Below are positions 709 to 23,591 of a stretch of 64,000 nucleotides of DNA, in pieces. Made by a program: the position numbers and the translations under genes. Origin of the DNA: Dentipellis sp. KUC8613 (lineage: Eukaryota > Basidiomycota > Agaricomycetes > Russulales > Hericiaceae). The notes under the pieces are model-generated. The model searched no databases. It had not been told where the DNA came from and saw only the letters and a program-made list of their open reading frames with translations. Each line of letters starts with the position of its first letter. Position 1 is the first letter of the stretch. The stretch covers positions 265,876 to 329,875 of the forward strand of contig NSJX01000019.1 in NCBI GenBank assembly GCA_002286715.1. Direction: 5' to 3'.

Positions 709-3700
709 ATGGCTCAGCGTCCCCCGCAAGCCTTGGCTCAGAAGGACCCGTTCTTGAATCCGAAGACTGTCCCAGTCGTGACGAACGCGTTTGCAATTCA
801 GACGCTTCCGACAACGCGTGGACGGGTGTTCTACCACTATGATAGTGCGTGTCTTGACCTCATTCCTCGATAGCGCGTATGCTAACATGTACATCGCGTT
901 CGCGTTCTCAGTCAGTACGTGGCAAAGTCGTCTGCGTAGTGTCTTCTGTTACTGATAAGCCACCACACTGCACTAGCTTTCCTTCCGGAAATCAAGCAGC
1001 CGTTCCGGGCGCAGATGTACCTCGACCACCTGCAGACCGTGCAAGAGCCCCAGATATTCCGTCCACGCGTCGTTTTCGACGGGAAGAAGAATGTGTGGTC
1101 TAGCCACCTGCTTTTTGAAGGCCCGGGCGCGACGGTGCGCGTAATCGCGTTCAGAATTGCCATAGGTGCTGACAACTCCCAGTTCGAGGTCAAGGCGTCG
1201 AAAAATCCTACTTCGAAGGCGAAACCGATTCTCATCCGGTTCAACCTTGTGGGTGAGCCTATAGATGTATTGTGAGTTCGCCGCGATATGATAGTCATAT
1301 AAATGCTGAGTGCGGATATGCGCTGTGTGCACTAGGTCGGCCATCAACAGTCTCGTCGAGAATAAGGCGCATCCTCGGCAGGCCGAGGCTGTCAACGTAT
1401 TGCAGGCCACTGTCCGCCAGTTCCCAATCATGTATGTACGCGTCGTCTCCGGTCGCTGCATTCCCTCACTCTTGTTCCTGTAACACAGGCAGGAACAGAC
1501 GTTCAACGCGCGCTCGGTGTTCACGAACCAGGGTTCGCGCCCAATCGGAGGCGGATTCGAACTTTGGCGCGGCTTCTTCCAGTATGTCGCTTGGTTCACT
1601 TCTTCTCTGTGTATATGCTGACAGGATTGCAGGTCCGTCCGTCCGGCTCCTGGGAGAATGATAATTAACGTCGACACTTCGACGGGAATGGTGTACGCTA
1701 CCTTCTGACATCTCCTGTGCTGGGTATTGGTCTGATATTGCACTAGCTACTCCCCGCAGCGCCTAGATGCGTGGGCTGTAGAGTTCCTGTACTATGGCGA
1801 GCAGAGGAAGAACATCCGTACTCTCGCGCACATGTCGCCGCAGAGTGTCGAGTTCAAGAAGCTCAAGCAGGCGCTGAAGAACTTGAAGTTCAGACCGGTG
1901 GTGCCGCAGAAGAGTCAGGGCGTGCGCCCCATCAAGTCTATCATCCTCGAGGCCGGCAAATTCGAGTTCGACTATGACGGGCGGATGGTCACTGTTGCGG
2001 TCGGTCTCATCTTGCTTTGTGTAATCCTCGAACCAATATTATTGTTCTGCAGCAATACTATTATGAGAAATATGGCAAACAACTTCAGTACCCAGAACTG
2101 TTTGGTGTTGTCACAAAGGAGAAGCCTTTCAAGGTTGTCTTCCCAGCTGAGATATGCATGATTGAGCCTGGGCAGCTCTATAAAAAGGCTGCACCCCCTC
2201 ACCTCATGAATGAGATACTCAAATTCTCTTCCCAGTCTCCGGCAGATAGGCTGAGAGCAATCCAGAGGGGTGTCCAGGGCAATGTGAGTTTTCCATCATC
2301 AGAGTTGTGTATGCATGTTTGCTTAGTCTGGTTTAGTTTCTGGGTTACTCAAGCTCAGACTTCATGAGTACTGCCAGTGTGATGGTGAACCCCACTCCCA
2401 TCACCACCAAAGGGAAGATGCTGCATCCTCCATTTATCCAATATGGCTCAAACACCATCAAACCTGTGTGTTAACTTGATCTTGCTGTTGTATTATTTAT
2501 TGACTTGATGTATAGAAAGATGGAGCATGGAACCTTCTGGGGCAGAGGTTTGCAAAGCCTGGTGACCTTACCCAATGGGTTATTGTCAACTTTACTGCCA
2601 AAGTCCATTGGGACTTGGTGCTGAGGTTTATAGATACCCTCATTGACTGCTGTCATAAATTGGGTAGGTATTCACATGAATCTCATTTTTCCCCCTATTC
2701 TGACCATGCCTTTCAGGGATGAGTAAGTCATGCTATTTGCACTGGGACTGTTTTCTCAATCAATGTAGGGACTTCCAGGCCTATCAATACTGTCAACATT
2801 TCATTTTCAGGGCAGGGTCTGACAGACAGGGTATTTTCTGTATATTTGAAGCTCCCTTTCAGCATATTGACATGTGGGTTCCAGGCACTCAAAGAGATTG
2901 TAGACTACAAGCCCAAGCTTGTTGTTGCTGTTCTACCCAATGAAGCTGCAGAGATTAGAAGGGATTTGAAAGTGTGGGGAGACACAATCTATGGTATTCC
3001 AACTCAGTGTGTAGTAAGTTTTGCACCTTTTCATGGTTGTCAAGAAATATTTCTCATGATCATGACAGAGAGAGAACAAGATCTACAAGGCTAACAATCA
3101 ATATTGCAATAATCTGGCAATGAAGTATAAAGTTACAATATTTATGGAATGCACTTTTGCTCATCAGAGTATAGGATCAACACTAAGATGCATGGTACCA
3201 ACTCCATTGTCCAGCATCCACTCAAGCAGACTGGGCTTTTGTCAACACCAACCATGATTGTTGGTAAGAATATTGCATCTTATTGCTACAATCCTGATAT
3301 TGATATTGCTCAAATGTCATAGGGATTGATGTTGGTCATGCAGGAGCTGGCATCAATAATCAGCCTTCTATTGCTTCTCTAGTGGCTTCATATGACCCAG
3401 ATTTTGCCAAATATATGACCTTGATCTCCCTACAAAAGCCAAGAAGTGAGATTATTGTGGACTTGAAGGCAATGATCATGGTAAGTACAGAGAAGTCCTC
3501 TGAACTCATTTTTACTGAGTACACTCTACATTCTTCAGAAAGCCATGCAATTCTTTTACCATGCAACCAAAGTTTTCAAGTTCAGGATTGTTGTCTTTCG
3601 TGATGGTGTCTCAGAAGGAGAATATGACAAGGTCATGGTGCAGGAAGTTGCAGCTATTGAAGGTCTGTGGGATGTTGATTTATGCTCAGCCATGCTATTT

Positions 3701-4615
3701 TTGTCTGACTTCTACTTGTAGAAGCATGGTCTGAGTTCACCAAGCCTTTGCTGAAGGAAAAGGAATCTCTGCCTCCAAGACTGAGCTATATTGTTGTGGG
3801 GAAAAGGTGTGTTGAAAATGGTCAGATAATTTGATCTAACTCACATATACATTTCTAGGCATCATATTAGATTCTTTCCTGCTGAAGGGATGTCCAGAGA
3901 TGACTTGTATGTCACCTCCTTACAATACCTTGCAATATATCTCACATATTTTGGTGCACACACAAACTCTCTTTTGATTTTCAGTGTGGACAGATCTACC
4001 AACTTTACTGCTGGTCTAGTTGTGGACAAGGAAATCACTGATCCTAGGGTCTCTCAGAATTTTTACCTTCAAAGTCATGGTGGAATCAAAGGCAGTAAGT
4101 TCCTAAATTCCCTTGGAAGTTTTTTTCCATGATAACTGAGTTCATAATCCAGCTAGTCGCTCAGGACATTATATCATCCTTCGAGATGACAACAAGTTTC
4201 CCACTGATTTGTGAGGACATGTTCTAATTCTCGGCAATGATTTGATCACTGAGATTTTTGTCAGGTGGGAGCATGTGGCATTCTATCTATGCCATGTCTA
4301 TAGCAGGGCTAGCAGATCTGTGTCAATTCCTGCCCCAGTATATTGTCTGTCTGCTTTTTTTCTGTTCTGGCACCTGTTTATTCATGATGTTACTTTATAG
4401 ATGCAGATGTATGGCTTATTATGTGTCATTTGGATGCTGTGCTAATTTTTTGTGTTTCAGATTGTTTGTGCCAGGGCTGTGTTTTACTTCAAGAATGAGG
4501 TAACTTATGGAACTGAACTATCTAGTGAGAGTCCAGATGAGTGTGATCTGGATTGGTGGAGGGCAAGGTTCAGGCCTGTGCACAGAAATCTTAGAGGGGG
4601 CATGTTCTTTGTTTG
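709..4615 (+). CDS. Argonaute protein, copy A
   Basis: Guide-RNA-binding Argonaute, the effector of RNA silencing. Many short introns. Start chosen at ATG 709 (context ACCATGG), giving an N-terminus that aligns with copy B up to FYHYD. Order seen: N domain (PFRAQMYLDHLQT, FRPRVVFDGKKN), L1 (FELWRGFFQ, GRMIINVDTSTGMV), PAZ (YEKYGKQLQYPELFGVV, CMIEPGQLYKK), L2/MID, and PIWI. The PIWI catalytic residues are readable: Asp in GIDVGHAG (codon 3328), Glu in RSEIIVDL (3448), Asp in FRDGVSEG (3602), and Asp in PVYYAD (4406). This D-E-D-D set is also found in fungal slicers such as Neurospora QDE-2. The protein ends MFFV rather than the common MYF-x. Exons after about 2050 contain almost no CpG and use only AGA/AGG for Arg apart from one CGT, unlike the 5' exons. 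No frame break was seen. Confidence 0.93.
912..914 (+). other. candidate 3-nt microexon of Argonaute A
   Basis: The exon ending ...HYD-A at 844 is followed by an intron 845-911 ending cag, then TCA, then gtacgt starting an intron 915-976 ending ctag. Splicing A+TCA+CT gives HYDITFLPEI; skipping TCA gives HYDTFLPEI, also in frame. The two introns (67 and 62 nt) match the usual size here and each holds its own branch-like motif (ctaac; ctgat). Copy B has the same cag-TCA-gtacgt arrangement. Confidence 0.65.
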
Positions 4616-5145
4616 AATATCTGGTTGATCTGTTTACTTATATACAGTATCTGTATTCTATGTGTGTAGTGTTCATTTGTGTTTATGTTGGGTTACATGG
4701 TATATATCACTGAATGTCATACAAGTTACCCCCTACCTATGCCAAAATTGAATGATTTTGAGGAGTGTACATGATAACAGTATATTAATGTTAATCATTC
4801 TGAGATGCAGGGATATAAGACAAACATTTCATAAAATGAGTACAACAGGTCATGTCTAGTTACTGTCTTTTGTCAAGAATCACTCCCACCAGGATCACCA
4901 CAGTCTGAAGCATTTTCTGCAAGCCCTGGTTGCATGGATGACATGAGTATGACTTCTGTCAATCACATTGCTTGAGCAGGAAAGGCTCATCATGAAGCTA
5001 GAGGAAAAAATCAATATCAAATGTACACCATCCCAATGGAATGCCAGTGGCTACATACCAAAGGATACAGACTGCCAAGCTGCATGGAATCCAAAGCCAT
5101 AAGCATCAGAAACAGAATGTAATTTGTCAAGCCCACCTGAGACTC
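2034..5145. other. CpG desert over the 3' part of Argonaute A
   Basis: By eye I find only about five CpG dinucleotides in roughly 3.1 kb (near 2237, 3599, 4157, 4181, 4234), while both flanks are CpG-rich. The last upstream CpG is at 2029, inside the PAZ intron 2000-2052. The block runs past the Argonaute stop at 4615 into the 3' exons of the convergent metacaspase gene. TG and CA are abundant, as expected from deamination of methylated CpG. Confidence 0.9.
4616..4958. other. convergent intergenic spacer
   Basis: AT-rich, CpG-free 3' flank between Argonaute A and the metacaspase gene. It holds no open frame of note and probably contains the 3' ends of both transcripts. Confidence 0.5.
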
Positions 5146-18326: not shown

Positions 18327-19749
18327 TGTGGAGGAAAGGGGGGATGCGGCGTAAAGGTTGCGGCGTGAGGGCAGCCTGAGTCTCCTCACTACAGTGCGTT
18401 ACTGTCACACTGTCACGGTCTCGGAGTTCCAGCCTTTGGCCAGTGCACTGTGCGGCCTTCTTCTTCCGTCCTCCTTACACCACATGTCGGTCGTACTTCA
18501 GCATGTTTCAGCTCACAGACCCGGCGCGGAAAAGACTAGGCTGGCTTTGACGTGGTTAGAAGGATTGAAGGAGCAGGGGACACGCGTTCGAAAGTGAGTA
18601 TTGCTGTTACAGTTCGTTGCTAATGGATCATCGCTAGCTCGATAACATGGTCTCGAAGTTCGTCCAAGACTGCTGAGAAAACTCGCCGGTTGACATTCTC
18701 TCACCCTTCCCAACATATAGCCAGCAGGCCTTGACGCTTCCATCATCGCCCGTGTGTCCGCACGCTTGACACGGCCTCCAATGCATGATTGCATTTCGAC
18801 GGCCATGGCGCGACAGTCTGGCGATTGGGATTCTTCGATATATCTATCTCGAGGCTGTATCTACTCTCCGTCTGTCGTCACTTCCACTTTGTACCACTTG
18901 TGCCTCATTCTTGCCGGTATGCTCACCCGTCGTTGACTTGGAGCATTCGCGTGAAGTATCGCATTTCGTGGCACACGACGCATGTGATCGACTATCCAGC
19001 ATCTATGTCGCTGCAGAGCCATGGACGTTGTGACCACGGCCAGCTTGGACAACGTTTCGGACGTCGTATATCTCGCCTGTGTCGCGCCACTGTCACCCTT
19101 TCATCACCCCGCGTGTCATCGTTCTCCTCGCCAGCGGTTTGCTTCTACCTGCAGGCCGAGAATGATGCTCCTCTCTGTTGACCCATCGAAGCTATATGCG
19201 ACCTGGCGCGGCTCGTCGGTGGCTTGTCACGGTACTGGCCATGCACGGCCAGTACGATGTCGCGTACCCGTACAGAGGACATGGCATCCCTTTGCTATTG
19301 CCCCGCACATAATGTCGCGTATGCTTGCGGCCAGTAACTTCTTTCTGAAAATGCTTTGACTGGTGACAAACACCGGCCTAAGTGACTCGTGCCCAGCAGC
19401 TATTGTAGGCTGGCAGCGAGCTTGGAGATGGTGCACATGTGATTGTTTGTTAGCTACAACTGTGGTGTAGCTTGTTGTTTTACTAGGAGGAGACAGCCCT
19501 GCAGATGTTTGTCATTGTCATTTACCACATCCTTTGATTTCAATGCTATTCCTATTTGTTCACACATCAGACAAATGCATAGATCCAAACACAACATACA
19601 TGACATTCAGATGACTTCTGCTACATGATACTCCTACATATGCACTCAACACAGATATTATCAGCACTACACAATTCCTGCAACACAGATACACCTGAGA
19701 TCCCACAAACTAAGCTGCAACAAGATTCAACAATATCATCCACCAAACC
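18327..19749. other. spacer upstream of the DUF7137-like gene and downstream of Argonaute B
   Basis: Holds short plus-strand frames (18484-18597 and 18789-19181) without recognisable domains. The first could be spliced (MSVVLQHVSAHRPG...) but ends quickly. From about 19420 onward the sequence is CpG-free and belongs to the Argonaute B CpG desert. No gene is called. Confidence 0.4.
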
Positions 19750-22365
19750 TCAGACAAAGAACATCTGCCCCTGGATATGAGAGCGAAGAGGCCTGAAGTT
19801 GCTCCTCCACTTCTCCAGGTCAAATTGGGCCTGGGGATCAATGCTGGATGTCTCAGAGCCATATCTCACTTCATCCTTGAAGTAGAATACAGCTCTGGCA
19901 CAGACAAGCTACAGATTGGACAGATGAGTAAGAGAGAAATTCAGCAAAGAAATTCCTCACATCAGCATCTGTGGAAAAGAAAATTCATGAGCAATTAGAA
20001 GAAAAGATAGAAGAAACACCTACAATATACAGGGGCAGGGATAGACACAGATCTGCTGGCCCTGCTATACACATGACACAAGTAAAATGCCATATGCTCC
20101 AATCTGCACTTCACTTCAGAAAAATTGATTGTCTTACAAGAAAAACATGCACTTACATATCCATCCTGAGGTCATTGTCATCATGAAGAACAACATAGTG
20201 ACCTGAACGACTAGCTGAAGGAAAAAATCAGCATTTCAGCATACACATGAGCAAAAAAAATGATACTTACTGCCCTTGAGACCACCATGACTCTGAAGGT
20301 AGAAGTTCTTGGAGATGCTGGGGTCAATCACTCCTTGATCCACCACAAGTCCAGCAGTGAAGTTGTTGGACCTGTCAACACTGATTATAGAGAAGAAAAT
20401 TTAAGTGAAAAAAGGACAAAGAATAAAGTAGAAGGAATACCCACACAGCTGGAGGAGTCCTGTCAGGAGGGAAGAACCTGATATGGTGCCTGCAAAAATT
20501 ATGATGAAAATCAAGTCTCAGAATCAGTCAGATTGATACATACCTCTTGCCAACCACAATGTAGGTGAGTTTCAAGGGAAGATCCTCTTTGAAGGGCTTG
20601 ATGAACTGTGCCCATGCCTCTGCACAAGACATAAAGAATTAATGTTGAGATGCAAGAATGTGGTTTCATTCCACTTACCTTGAATAGCAGAAACTTCATA
20701 CTGGAGCACCTGATCATATTCTCCTTCTGAGACACCATCCCTGAAGAACACAATCCTGAACTTGTACATGGGCTTGTTCTTCAAATAGAAGAACTTCATG
20801 GCCTCCTATGAAAGAATAGCATGATGAATTATCCATGAAGACTGAAAAAAAGGTGCAAACTTACAAACATCATCCTGCTTAGGTCAGCGATAATCTCTGT
20901 CCTGGGTTCCTGCAAGGAGACAGAGGTCATGTACTTGGAGAAGCCTCTGTCAAATGAAGCCACAACTGATGCAATGGATGGCTGATTATTGATGCCAGCC
21001 CCAGCATGACCAACATCAGCACCTGATACATAGTGAGTGATCAAGATGATGCAGCCACAAAATAATACACTCACCAACAACCATGAGTGGCTGGGCCATG
21101 AAGCCTGTCTGATTGAGAGGGTGCTGCACTGCAGAGTTTGTCCCTAGCAACTTGGTATTGATCCTGAGCTGTGATGAGCAACAGCATGATATGATATAAA
21201 TGTAAAAGATAACATACTTCATAGCCAGATTCCTGTTGTATTGGTCCCCAGCATTGTGGACCTTGTTCTCCCTCTGATGCAATCATGAGGAGCACATTTT
21301 TGTTAAGAAAAGTGAAACAAAACTCACAACACATTGGGTGGGAATACCAACACCAGTTTCTCCCCAGGCTTTCAAGGCCCTTCTCAGCTCTGCAGCATTG
21401 GTGGGGAGAATAGCTAGCACAAGTTTGGGCTTGTACTGTGCAATCTCCCCCCATACCTGAGCAAACTATTAGCTTATGCAGATGCACTGTCAACACTGAA
21501 CTCACCTTCTGCAAACCATGGGCAGTCAAGACAATAGGCTCCTGATTTTTGGGCTTGCTGGTAGCTGAAAGATCATTGAGATACAAATCAGCAACATCAA
21601 GGCAGGATACAGCTCACCCATTCCTATGAATGAAATCAGAATCATACTCAGATATAAAGTGCACAAAAACTTACCCAGATCAGCACAGCACATGGCAAGA
21701 TTCCTAACAAAGTTCAACACCACCCCTGCAGGCAGGGCAGAGAAGTTCACAATGACATAGTCATTGAAAGCACCAGGCTCTATGAATTTCCTCCCAACAA
21801 GATTCCAAGAGCCAGCCCTCTGCAGTATTAGATGAATAAAAAGATGCAGGAACACAGGGAACAATCACATACAGGGCTAACATTGGTGTCACCATATTGA
21901 ATAGATGGTGGAGGAAGCATTTTGCCCTTGACATTGATGGGGGTGGTGTCTATTGTCACATTGGCAGCACTCAGGAAATCTGACTGGGAGTAACTCAAGA
22001 ACTTGAAGAGAGTCAGAATACATACATGGCACTCAGAAATTCAAGATACTCACATTTCCACCAATGCCCCTCTGAATTGAAGACAGCCTCCCTGCAGGAG
22101 GCTGAGAAGAGAACCTCAGAACCTCATCCATCAGATGGGGAGGAACCTTCTTCTTGAACAACTGCCCAGGCTCAATAAAGCAGATCTCTGCTGGGATGAC
22201 AACTCTGAAAGGCTTCTCCTTCATGACCACCCCAAAGGAATCAGGGTACTGCAGATGCTTGCCATATCTCTTGGCATAGTATTCCTAGACAAGAGATGTT
22301 ATAGGATGAAAGAGGGAATAGAATAACAGAACACACTGCAACAGTTGTCATCTTCCCATCCAAAT
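19418..22365. other. CpG desert over the 3' part of Argonaute B
   Basis: Only about three CpG (near 19784, 20208, 20888) in about 2.95 kb, against CpG-rich flanks. The upstream edge is at 22366, next to the PAZ intron complement(22285..22336), the same intron at which the copy A desert begins. It extends about 330 nt beyond the Argonaute stop. Arg codons inside are AGA/AGG almost without exception. Confidence 0.9.
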
Positions 22366-23591
22366 CGAACTCGTAACGACCGCCCTGAGGGATAATCGAC
22401 TTGATCGGGCGTGCACCCTGGCTCTGCTTCGGCGTGTCGGTCTTGATCCTCACACCCTTCAGCACGTTCTTAAGATTCTTGAACTTCTCTTCCCCCGGTC
22501 GGAGGCTGCTGAGTTCACGAATGTTCACCTGACGCTGGCCAGGGTTCAGGAAGGCGGAGGCCCAGGCGTCGAGGCGCTTCTCCGCGTAGCTATCACAATG
22601 TCAGGCGTCATTCGATGAGAAAGGCTTAGCGACGTACACAATACCGGTTGATATATCGACATTGATGATCATCCTGCCCGGGGCGGGGCGAACAGACCTG
22701 TCGTTTGGTCAATTATCTATGCACCAGCAACGGATACTAGACGGTCGCAACGTACTGGAAGTATCCGCGCCATAAGTCGAACGCGCCGCCGGTCACCCTC
22801 GCGCCTTCGCTCGAGAATACTGAACGGGCGTTGAATGTCTTCTGTCGCCTAGATAGTTTGACGCAGAAAAAGTTCAGGGACCGACGACGAAGAGAGCGCA
22901 TATACGTACATGATGGGAGCCTGGCGAACAATCGCCTGCAAGATGTTCACGGCCTCTGCTCGGCGGGAGATGGGCTGCCCTTTGGTCGCCGCGTTGATGA
23001 TAGACCTGGGTGGCGCATGAACAAGTCATAATTCGAAGTAAGCAACCGACAGTAGTACACGTACAAGACGTCGATCGGAGCGCCGACGGGGGTGAAGCGG
23101 ATGGTAACGGGCTTCGATCTCGAGTTGGGGTTGTTCGACAAGCGGACATCGAACTGCGGCATATGAGCATACTGGTCAGGAGTTTAGTAGGTAGACGCAC
23201 CGTTGCACCCCCGTCACCGAAGAGCTTGTGGCTAGACCAGACATTCTTCTTTCCATCGAATACGACGCGGGGGCGAAACAGCGAAGCTTCCTGTATAGTC
23301 TGGAGATGGTCCAGGTAAATCTGCGCCCTAAATGGTTGCCGAATCTCGGGGTCGAAAGCTAGAAACATGCACTCGATCAATACAGAACGCGCACTCGAAC
23401 AGCTCTCACGACGTACTGACTGCAGAGACGGCGTCACACGAAACATGACATTAGTGCACGAAGCAAAAGGTAGCGAGTCAGCAATACTGACTGTCGTAGT
23501 GATAGAAAAGACGAGATTTCTGAGACGGTAAGGCCTTGATCACGAAGGCATTGGTTTGCACCGAGACAGGTGCGGGGTCTGGGAACGCCAT
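19750..23591 (-). CDS. Argonaute protein, copy B
   Basis: Paralogue of copy A in opposite orientation, with many short introns at mostly the same places. Start ATG 23591 (MAFPDPAPVSVQTNAF), then RLFYHYD. N domain: FDPEIRQPFRAQIYLDHLQT, FRPRVVFDGKKNVWSSH. L1: GAFDLWRGYFQ, MIINVDIST. PAZ: YYAKRYGKHLQYPDSFGVV, ICFIEPGQLFKKK. PIWI: GADVGHAGAGINNQPSIAS (Asp codon at 21015-21017), PRTEIIADL, FFRDGVSEGEYDQVL, SIPAPVYYADLVCARA. The D-E-D-D tetrad is therefore intact, implying slicer ability. Ends MFFV like copy A, stop at 19750. Exons downstream of 22337 are CpG-depleted; 5' exons are not. No stop or frameshift was seen. Copy B differs from A throughout at the protein level, so the duplication is not recent. 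Confidence 0.93.
23417..23419 (-). other. candidate 3-nt microexon of Argonaute B
   Basis: On the minus strand the sequence reads ctctgcag-TCA-gtacgt, the same junction as in copy A at 912-914. Inclusion gives HYDITFDPEI and skipping gives HYDTFDPEI. Both flanking introns would be of ordinary length. The flanking intron sequences differ between the copies while the junction is kept. Confidence 0.65.

What the first reader, a model, noticed from the sequence alone, without database searches (positions are those of the whole stretch)
19418..22365. Matching CpG desert in Argonaute B with the same intron boundary
The second copy shows the same loss of CpG and its edge falls at the same PAZ intron. 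The shared boundary means either the ancestor already had the desert or a homology-dependent process acts on just this part of both copies, for example self-targeting by RNA silencing of its own Argonaute genes. CpG loss without stops differs from classical RIP.
Basis: partly seen in the sequence, partly recalled or inferred. Interest (0 to 1): 0.8.

Follow-up and report, generated by a model that had tools for sequence, protein, structure and literature searches.

The report
Silencing genes stripped of CpG
In a wood-rotting fungus, long stretches inside two Argonaute genes have lost almost every CpG although the genes look intact, and the same scar sits inside the two DNMT1-type DNA methyltransferase genes found in its genome, which suggests that the DNA-silencing machinery may long have been marking its own genes.

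Summary
Confirmed, and wider than reported. Argonaute A (+, 709-4616) and B (-, 23591-19750) are intact, with 25 exons each and 24 matching introns. From intron 8, inside PAZ, to 0.3-0.5 kb past the stop, exons, introns and flank have lost CpG: 5 seen vs 264 expected in A, 3 vs 249 in B. The two edges agree within error. RIP indices contradict classical RIP.

New: the only other clear deserts met lie in the two DNMT1-type methyltransferase genes found in the same genome (Dentipellis, Russulales). Their catalytic motifs are intact and their starts spared. 74 other places sampled, among them four Argonaute loci, RdRPs, Dicers and 28 arbitrary points, showed no clear desert; one retroelement is doubtful.

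A-B identity barely changes at the edge, which speaks against a homology-triggered process. Synonymous sites are saturated in the 5' half but not in the desert, which favours an old, inherited desert. Best reading: chronic gene-body CpG methylation and 5mC deamination under purifying selection, possibly self-targeting of the silencing machinery. Methylation, small RNAs and relatives' DNA were not examined.

The parts
709..4616 (+). Argonaute A gene: 25 exons, 24 introns, 854 aa, no stops; ArgoN, ArgoL1, PAZ, Mid, Piwi. No record of its own turned up in the protein searches.
   Evidence: Hand-built spliced model, Pfam, protein search best hit 63%
2030..5144 (.). CpG desert A: from inside intron 8 to about 0.53 kb past the stop; 5 CpG, 264 expected; TpG and CpA raised
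2000..2052 (+). Intron 8 of A (inside PAZ), the 5' edge of desert A (95% 2004-2073)
19750..23591 (-). Argonaute B gene: 25 exons, 24 introns, 838 aa, no stops; matches P0001 of Dentipellis sp. KUC8613 at 100% over 88% of its length (the database model is shorter)
19418..22365 (.). CpG desert B: from 29 bp before intron 8 to about 0.33 kb past the stop; 3 CpG, 249 expected
22285..22336 (-). Intron 8 of B (inside PAZ), the 5' edge of desert B (95% 22366-22321)

Best explanation
The deserts are footprints of long-lasting CpG methylation confined to the bodies of a very few genes. SHOWN: CpG is almost gone from exons, introns and 3' flank alike, with TpG and CpA both in excess; the reading frames and catalytic residues are kept; start-proximal DNA is spared; the same scar lies in two Argonaute genes and in the two DNMT1-type DNA methyltransferase genes found. 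INFERRED: (1) these gene bodies are, or long were, methylated at CpG by the DNMT1-type enzymes, and 5mC deamination turned CpG into TpG/CpA; (2) purifying selection kept the proteins; (3) the state is old, in A/B older than or about as old as their duplication; (4) because the marked genes encode maintenance-type methyltransferases and Argonautes, the marking may be a feedback in which silencing acts on its own components. The mutational origin (1-2) is the firm part; the feedback (4) is a guess that the gene list makes attractive.
For: 5 vs 264 and 3 vs 249 CpG, introns included. TG o/e 1.42/1.66 and CA o/e 1.58/1.44 in deserts A/B, so both strands are hit. Arg codons: in the two desert halves 5 CGN to 55 AGR, in the two 5' halves 36 CGN to 8 AGR. 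The 7 residual coding CpGs include 4 CGT/CGC Arg codons, which cannot reach AGR by one synonymous step, against 27 of 167 in the 5' halves (Fisher P 0.02); one of them is the same Arg codon in A and B (A 4158, B 20208). Protein constraint is equal on both sides: B vs D. fragilis orthologue 0.89 and 0.89. The slicer tetrad reads D-E-D-D: three residues align with those of human Argonaute and the fourth, D, aligns with an R of the Argonaute-1 chain (tetrad places recalled; D at the fourth place is also recalled for yeast KpAGO). The DNMT1-type genes on C22 and C128 are deserts (L026 o/e 0.05; L028 from about 0.8 kb on) with PCQ, ENV, QxRxR and GNAVP motifs (recalled labels) readable after splicing by eye. 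Starts spared: A 1.3 kb, B 1.2 kb, C22 1.7 kb, C128 0.17-0.47 kb after the likely ATG. No desert elsewhere in 297,575 scanned bases, overlaps included, nor at 28 of 28 arbitrary points. Basidiomycete DNMT1 and DNMT5 act mainly at CG (PMC7862722, passages).
Against: No methylation or small-RNA data exist here. A review calls fungal gene-body methylation generally negligible (PMC13297926, passages), though a rust fungus (PMC12129025, passages) and some genes of Ganoderma sinense (PMC4457147, passages) are reported methylated. 23 of 24 listed reverse-transcriptase hits, the expected methylation targets, have near-normal CpG (o/e 0.68 or more), so methylation must be less mutagenic, or younger, there than in the four genes. 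The DNMT1 list rests on two genes that share ancestry (36% aa over 274 positions), and silencing genes of other families show no desert where sampled.
Confidence: 0.68

Rival explanations
1. Ordinary gene-body methylation of a small random set of genes (up to a few percent); DNMT1 and Argonaute are there by coincidence, with no feedback. (This shares the mutational part of the best explanation.)
For: The genome could not be scanned whole. No desert in about 200 kb of contiguous DNA and at 28 arbitrary points still allows about 3-4% of loci (my estimate). Spared starts resemble animal and plant gene-body methylation (recalled).
Against: 2 of 2 DNMT1-type genes found and 2 of 6 Argonaute loci are hit, while 0 clear deserts came up at 74 other places sampled; fungal gene-body methylation is called generally negligible.
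Confidence: 0.22
2. Homology-dependent process (RIP- or MIP-like) triggered by the A/B duplication.
For: A and B are a convergent pair 15 kb apart with the same edge; CpG-preferring RIP-like mutation is reported in Ganoderma (PMC4457147, passages).
Against: A-B CDS identity is 65-69% and hardly changes at the edge; an Argonaute pair on C1 and an RdRP pair on C128 are CpG-normal; the C22 DNMT1 desert gives no blastn hit to the C128 one, to A or to B; RIP indices are opposite to RIP. Identity at the time of duplication is unknown.
Confidence: 0.08
3. Selection removed CpG so that the genes needed for silencing cannot themselves be methylated and switched off.
For: It would explain why DNMT1 and Argonaute genes are singled out.
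Against: Promoters and 5' exons, where methylation would be expected to silence most (recalled), are CpG-rich (C22 exon up to 47 CpG per 200 bp); introns and post-stop DNA are cleared as well; GC of desert introns is 0.34-0.35 against 0.47-0.49 upstream, as expected of mutational decay.
Confidence: 0.1
4. The methylation is RNA-directed, by small RNAs made from the 3' part of the transcript or from antisense transcripts (as at disiRNA loci), which would explain why 3' halves are hit. (A special case of the best explanation.)
For: Three of four deserts run past the stop and spare the 5' part; a Neurospora paper links convergent transcription to methylation at disiRNA loci (PMC3764098, title and start of abstract).
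Against: The C128 desert spares the last exons and begins within 0.5 kb of the likely start; no small-RNA data.
Confidence: 0.25

Closest known systems
Gene-body CpG methylation with CpG depletion (animals, plants; recalled)
   Same: CpG lost from the transcribed gene body, start-proximal DNA spared, protein kept
   Different: Near-total loss, very few genes as far as sampled, sharp edges; in a fungus, where gene-body methylation is called generally negligible (PMC13297926, passages), with a rust fungus as a reported exception (PMC12129025, passages)
CpG-type RIP-like mutation of transposons in Basidiomycota (Ganoderma sinense)
   Same: CpG is the preferred target and RIP-affected elements are methylated (PMC4457147, passages)
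   Different: Here intact genes are hit, while retroelement hits are nearly CpG-normal
RIP of the dim2 methyltransferase gene in Zymoseptoria tritici
   Same: A DNA methyltransferase gene is hit by a silencing-linked mutator (PMC8016269, start of abstract in the listing)
   Different: There gene amplification led to RIP and inactivation; here the genes are intact and the pattern is CpG-only
DNA methylation at disiRNA loci in Neurospora crassa
   Same: Methylation of genic DNA linked to transcription and small RNA (PMC3764098, title and start of abstract)
   Different: No small-RNA or methylation data here; whether it leaves CpG decay was not looked up

Membership tests
Classical RIP | Excess TpA, loss of CpA (TA/AT above 0.89; (CA+TG)/(AC+GT) below 1.03; cut-offs recalled) | tested here: not met
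   0.52-0.75 and 1.62-1.85 in four deserts
Classical RIP | Nonsense mutations, inactivation | tested here: not met
   Intact models of A and B; DNMT1 motifs readable; expression not known
Homology-dependent mutation or methylation (RIP/MIP) | Confined to the near-identical part of duplicated DNA | tested here: not met
   A-B CDS identity 65% vs 69% across the edge; C22 DNMT1 desert without blastn hit to C128, A or B. Identity at the time of duplication is unknown
CpG decay by 5mC deamination | CpG lost with TpG and CpA gained on both strands, coding or not | tested here: met
CpG decay by 5mC deamination | 5mC present | not testable with these tools
   No methylation data
Gene-body methylation | Start-proximal DNA spared, body marked | tested here: inconclusive
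   4 of 4 genes fit by CpG content; methylation itself not measured
Argonaute (A and B) | ArgoN, L1, PAZ, Mid and Piwi domains | tested here: met
   Pfam matches in both; Mid in B and L2 in both are below the curated cut-off
Argonaute (A and B) | Slicer tetrad in Piwi | tested here: met
   D-E-D-D in B by alignment to Argonaute-1, same residues in A by its translation; tetrad places and the D variant are recalled
DNMT1 (C22) | RFD, BAH and C5-methylase domains | tested here: met
   P0164, 98% identical, on a record of C22's length
DNMT1 (C128) | RFD, BAH and C5-methylase domains | tested here: inconclusive
   BAH and methylase found, though the piece of 134 aa gave no family; an RFD-like stretch was read by eye but not scored by PF12047

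The most novel reading that the evidence does not exclude
A self-referential epigenetic circuit: the CpG maintenance methyltransferases and a pair of Argonautes of a mushroom-class fungus have been the persistent targets of their own silencing pathway for so long, across an Argonaute duplication, that their gene bodies are nearly CpG-free. The genome thereby carries a readable fossil of autoregulation, and the cleared bodies can hardly be methylated at CpG any more.
Probability: 0.33. Interest if true: 0.88.

Novelty: new variant of a known kind. Interest (0 to 1): 0.74.

Why it matters
Fungal gene-body methylation is generally held to be negligible. If the bodies of DNMT1 and Argonaute genes were methylated over evolutionary time, that rule has a telling exception, and autoregulation of a silencing system could be read from sequence alone. 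The deserts give exact places to test by long-read methylation calling and small-RNA sequencing, and a simple CpG scan of other fungal genomes would show how old and how general the circuit is.

Tried and rejected
Classical RIP: indices contradict it. Chimeric gene or replaced 5' half: trees of the two protein halves agree on A and B, and identities are balanced. Recent gene conversion of the 3' half: matched introns exceed mismatched ones by only about 0.03, on both sides of the edge, and the synonymous excess is spread over the four quarters of the desert, none significant alone. Intron-bounded edges as a rule: the edges read (A, B, C22 5', C128 3') lie at or near introns, but exons are so short that this is not unusual, so it is not claimed. 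Desert as a transposon: desert A DNA matched only itself and B in the genome. Literature: searches for CpG-depleted silencing genes or related themes gave nothing on point in the listed titles (lists capped at 8-20 papers; one search found none). Two other BAH hits (C150, C109) and 8 of 9 TET/JBP hits were not sampled.

Full report
OBSERVATION. The window is contig C76:265876-329875 of a 34.1 Mb assembly in 171 contigs. Its CpG o/e is 1.03 overall, and near 0 in two places only, about 2.0-5.1 kb and 19.4-22.4 kb. Each lies in an Argonaute gene. Spliced by hand, A has 25 exons (854 aa) and B has 25 exons (838 aa); the 24 introns match one to one and no stop occurs. Both carry ArgoN, ArgoL1, PAZ, Mid and Piwi matches, Mid in B being below its curated cut-off. 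The best solved relatives are Argonaute-1, -3 and -2 chains; the alignment shows a slicer tetrad D-E-D-D in B, the fourth residue facing an R of Argonaute-1 (tetrad places recalled), and A has the same residues in the same motifs (translation).

EXTENT. In A exons 1-8 hold 86 CpG (o/e 1.20) and introns 1-8 hold 29 (1.06); exons 9-25 hold 4 (0.05), introns 9-24 hold 1 (0.04) and the 530 bp past the stop 1, at its rim. In B the figures are 81 (1.18), 32 (1.27), 3 (0.03), 0 and 1. Desert totals are 5 vs 264 expected and 3 vs 249 expected. A change-point fit puts the 5' edge at 2004-2073 in A and 22366-22321 in B (95%), that is +4 to +73 and -30 to +15 from the first base of intron 8; the intervals overlap. 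So 'same intron' holds within error, though the last dense CpGs are some 60 bp apart. By a rough count of mine, two independent edges would fall this close in about 2-3% of cases.

TYPE OF CHANGE. TpG and CpA are both raised; TpA/ApT and (CpA+TpG)/(ApC+GpT) run against RIP in all four deserts measured. Arg codons swung from 36 CGN: 8 AGR (5' halves of A and B together) to 5: 55 (desert halves). Of 7 residual coding CpGs, 4 are CGT or CGC Arg codons, which cannot turn into AGR by one synonymous change, against 27 of 167 upstream (Fisher P 0.02). This is what mutation pressure held in check by protein selection would leave. Desert introns have GC 0.34-0.35 against 0.47-0.49 upstream, more than one round of CpG loss would give by my reckoning, so the process looks old.

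ORGANISM. B is identical to P0001 of Dentipellis sp. KUC8613 over 88% of its length, though P0001's record is 494,312 bp long and C76 489,648. The C22 methyltransferase is 98% identical to P0164 of the same strain on a record of C22's exact length, 666,148 bp. D. fragilis has the B orthologue P0002 (90%). A has no near-identical record in either search; its best hit is P0002 at 63%, so A may be unannotated.

INHERITED OR HOMOLOGY-DRIVEN. A and B share 62.3% aa in the 5' half and 64.1% in the desert half; CDS identity is 64.7% and 69.1%. Same-residue codons agree no more than shuffles in the 5' half (74 of 170, expected 73.8), but more in the desert (192 of 341; expected 155.0, or 165.6 with the next base of B fixed, or 174.4 with both next bases fixed, P 0.004). 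The excess is spread over all quarters, none significant alone. Matched introns exceed mismatched ones by about 0.03 in both halves. Thus the desert half has not reached synonymous saturation while the CpG-rich half has. The simplest reading is that it was already CpG-poor, hence less mutable, near the time of duplication; a slower synonymous rate for another reason is not excluded. Trees of each protein half both give Hericium alpestre P0003 (a partial protein), then A, then D. fragilis P0002 with B: no chimerism, and a duplication before the split of the two Dentipellis.

BEYOND THE WINDOW. Piwi matches mark six Argonaute loci; the other four (a pair on C1, C2, C92) are CpG-normal. The search for DNA methyltransferases gave five places. 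Two, C22 and C128, proved to be deserts when I looked at their CpG content. Both look like DNMT1-type enzymes: C22 has RFD, BAH and methylase; C128 has BAH and methylase, with an RFD-like stretch read only by eye. The C22 desert begins at 532139-532080 (95%), 1.7 kb after the likely ATG and at an intron by my reading, and runs at least 0.47 kb past the stop; DNA at 527.5 and 526.0 kb is normal. The C128 desert begins between 634700 and 635001, 0.17-0.47 kb after the likely ATG, and ends between 630286 and 630164, before the last exons. The other three DNMT-like places (which I would call DNMT5, DNMT2 and one other, by recall) are normal.

CONTROLS. CpG-normal: 12 of 12 RdRP loci from 7 places; 6 of 6 samples at 3 Dicers, 1 Pre-SET, 1 of 9 TET/JBP hits; 3 samples on the 2 contigs with SRA hits and 1 Spo11-like hit; 28 of 28 arbitrary round-coordinate 100-bp points. 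All 24 listed reverse-transcriptase hits (the list is a lower bound) were sampled (5 of 200 bp, 19 of 100 bp): 23 near-normal, o/e 0.68 or more, and 1 (L113) with 1 CpG vs 4.0 expected. With the 4 Argonaute and 3 DNMT-like loci these make 74 places. Stretches of 400 bp or more, 297,575 bases with overlaps, have o/e below 0.25 only in the window, in the two loci that copy A and B, and in the two DNMT1 loci. Short samples cannot exclude a desert elsewhere in a sampled gene. From about 200 kb of contiguous DNA (my sum, CpG-normal Argonaute loci included) plus the 28 points I put the 95% upper limit near 3-4% of loci; with that, two unlinked DNMT1 genes both in deserts would be rare (about 0.001 if independent, about 0.035 if they share one origin), before allowing for the eleven families searched.

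MECHANISM. Shown: CpG-specific, two-stranded, coding and non-coding decay inside four intact-looking silencing genes, with spared starts. Inferred: chronic gene-body CpG methylation and deamination; age; feedback. [quoted passage not shown] a rust fungus is reported to have it (PMC12129025, passages), and methylated genes are reported in Ganoderma sinense (PMC4457147, passages). Basidiomycete DNMT1 with DNMT5 act mainly at CG (PMC7862722, passages). The gene list, not any measurement, suggests that silencing acts on its own components.

VERDICT. A real and striking feature, wider than reported; homology-dependence is unlikely; an old, inherited, methylation-type scar is most likely; self-targeting is open and testable.

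Noticed in passing
window 709-4616: Argonaute A appears to lack a protein record of its own: searches with A and with B returned no near-identical entry for A, though B's is there.
   Followed up: partly
C22 about 532335-532735 (L062): Just upstream of the C22 DNMT1 desert lies an extreme CpG-rich exon stretch (up to 47 CpG in 200 bp, GC 0.81), so the switch to a desert is very abrupt.
   Followed up: partly
L113 (C34:23401-23500): One reverse-transcriptase hit of 24 looks CpG-poor (1 CpG, 4.0 expected, TG+CA raised); perhaps an old methylated element.
   Followed up: no
L009 and the end of L010 (C76 about 253.7-265.9 kb): About 12.2 kb directly upstream of the window reads as N (gap or withheld), so the far 5' surroundings of Argonaute A are unknown.
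   Followed up: no
C128:46.9-49.1 kb and 53.6-55.9 kb: Two RdRP genes lie as a convergent, CpG-normal pair about 4.5 kb apart, a natural control for the A/B arrangement.
   Followed up: partly
C171, C46, C24, C84, C1, C151, C116: Seven TET/JBP hits over the cut-off occur in this genome, so active demethylation is possible.
   Followed up: no
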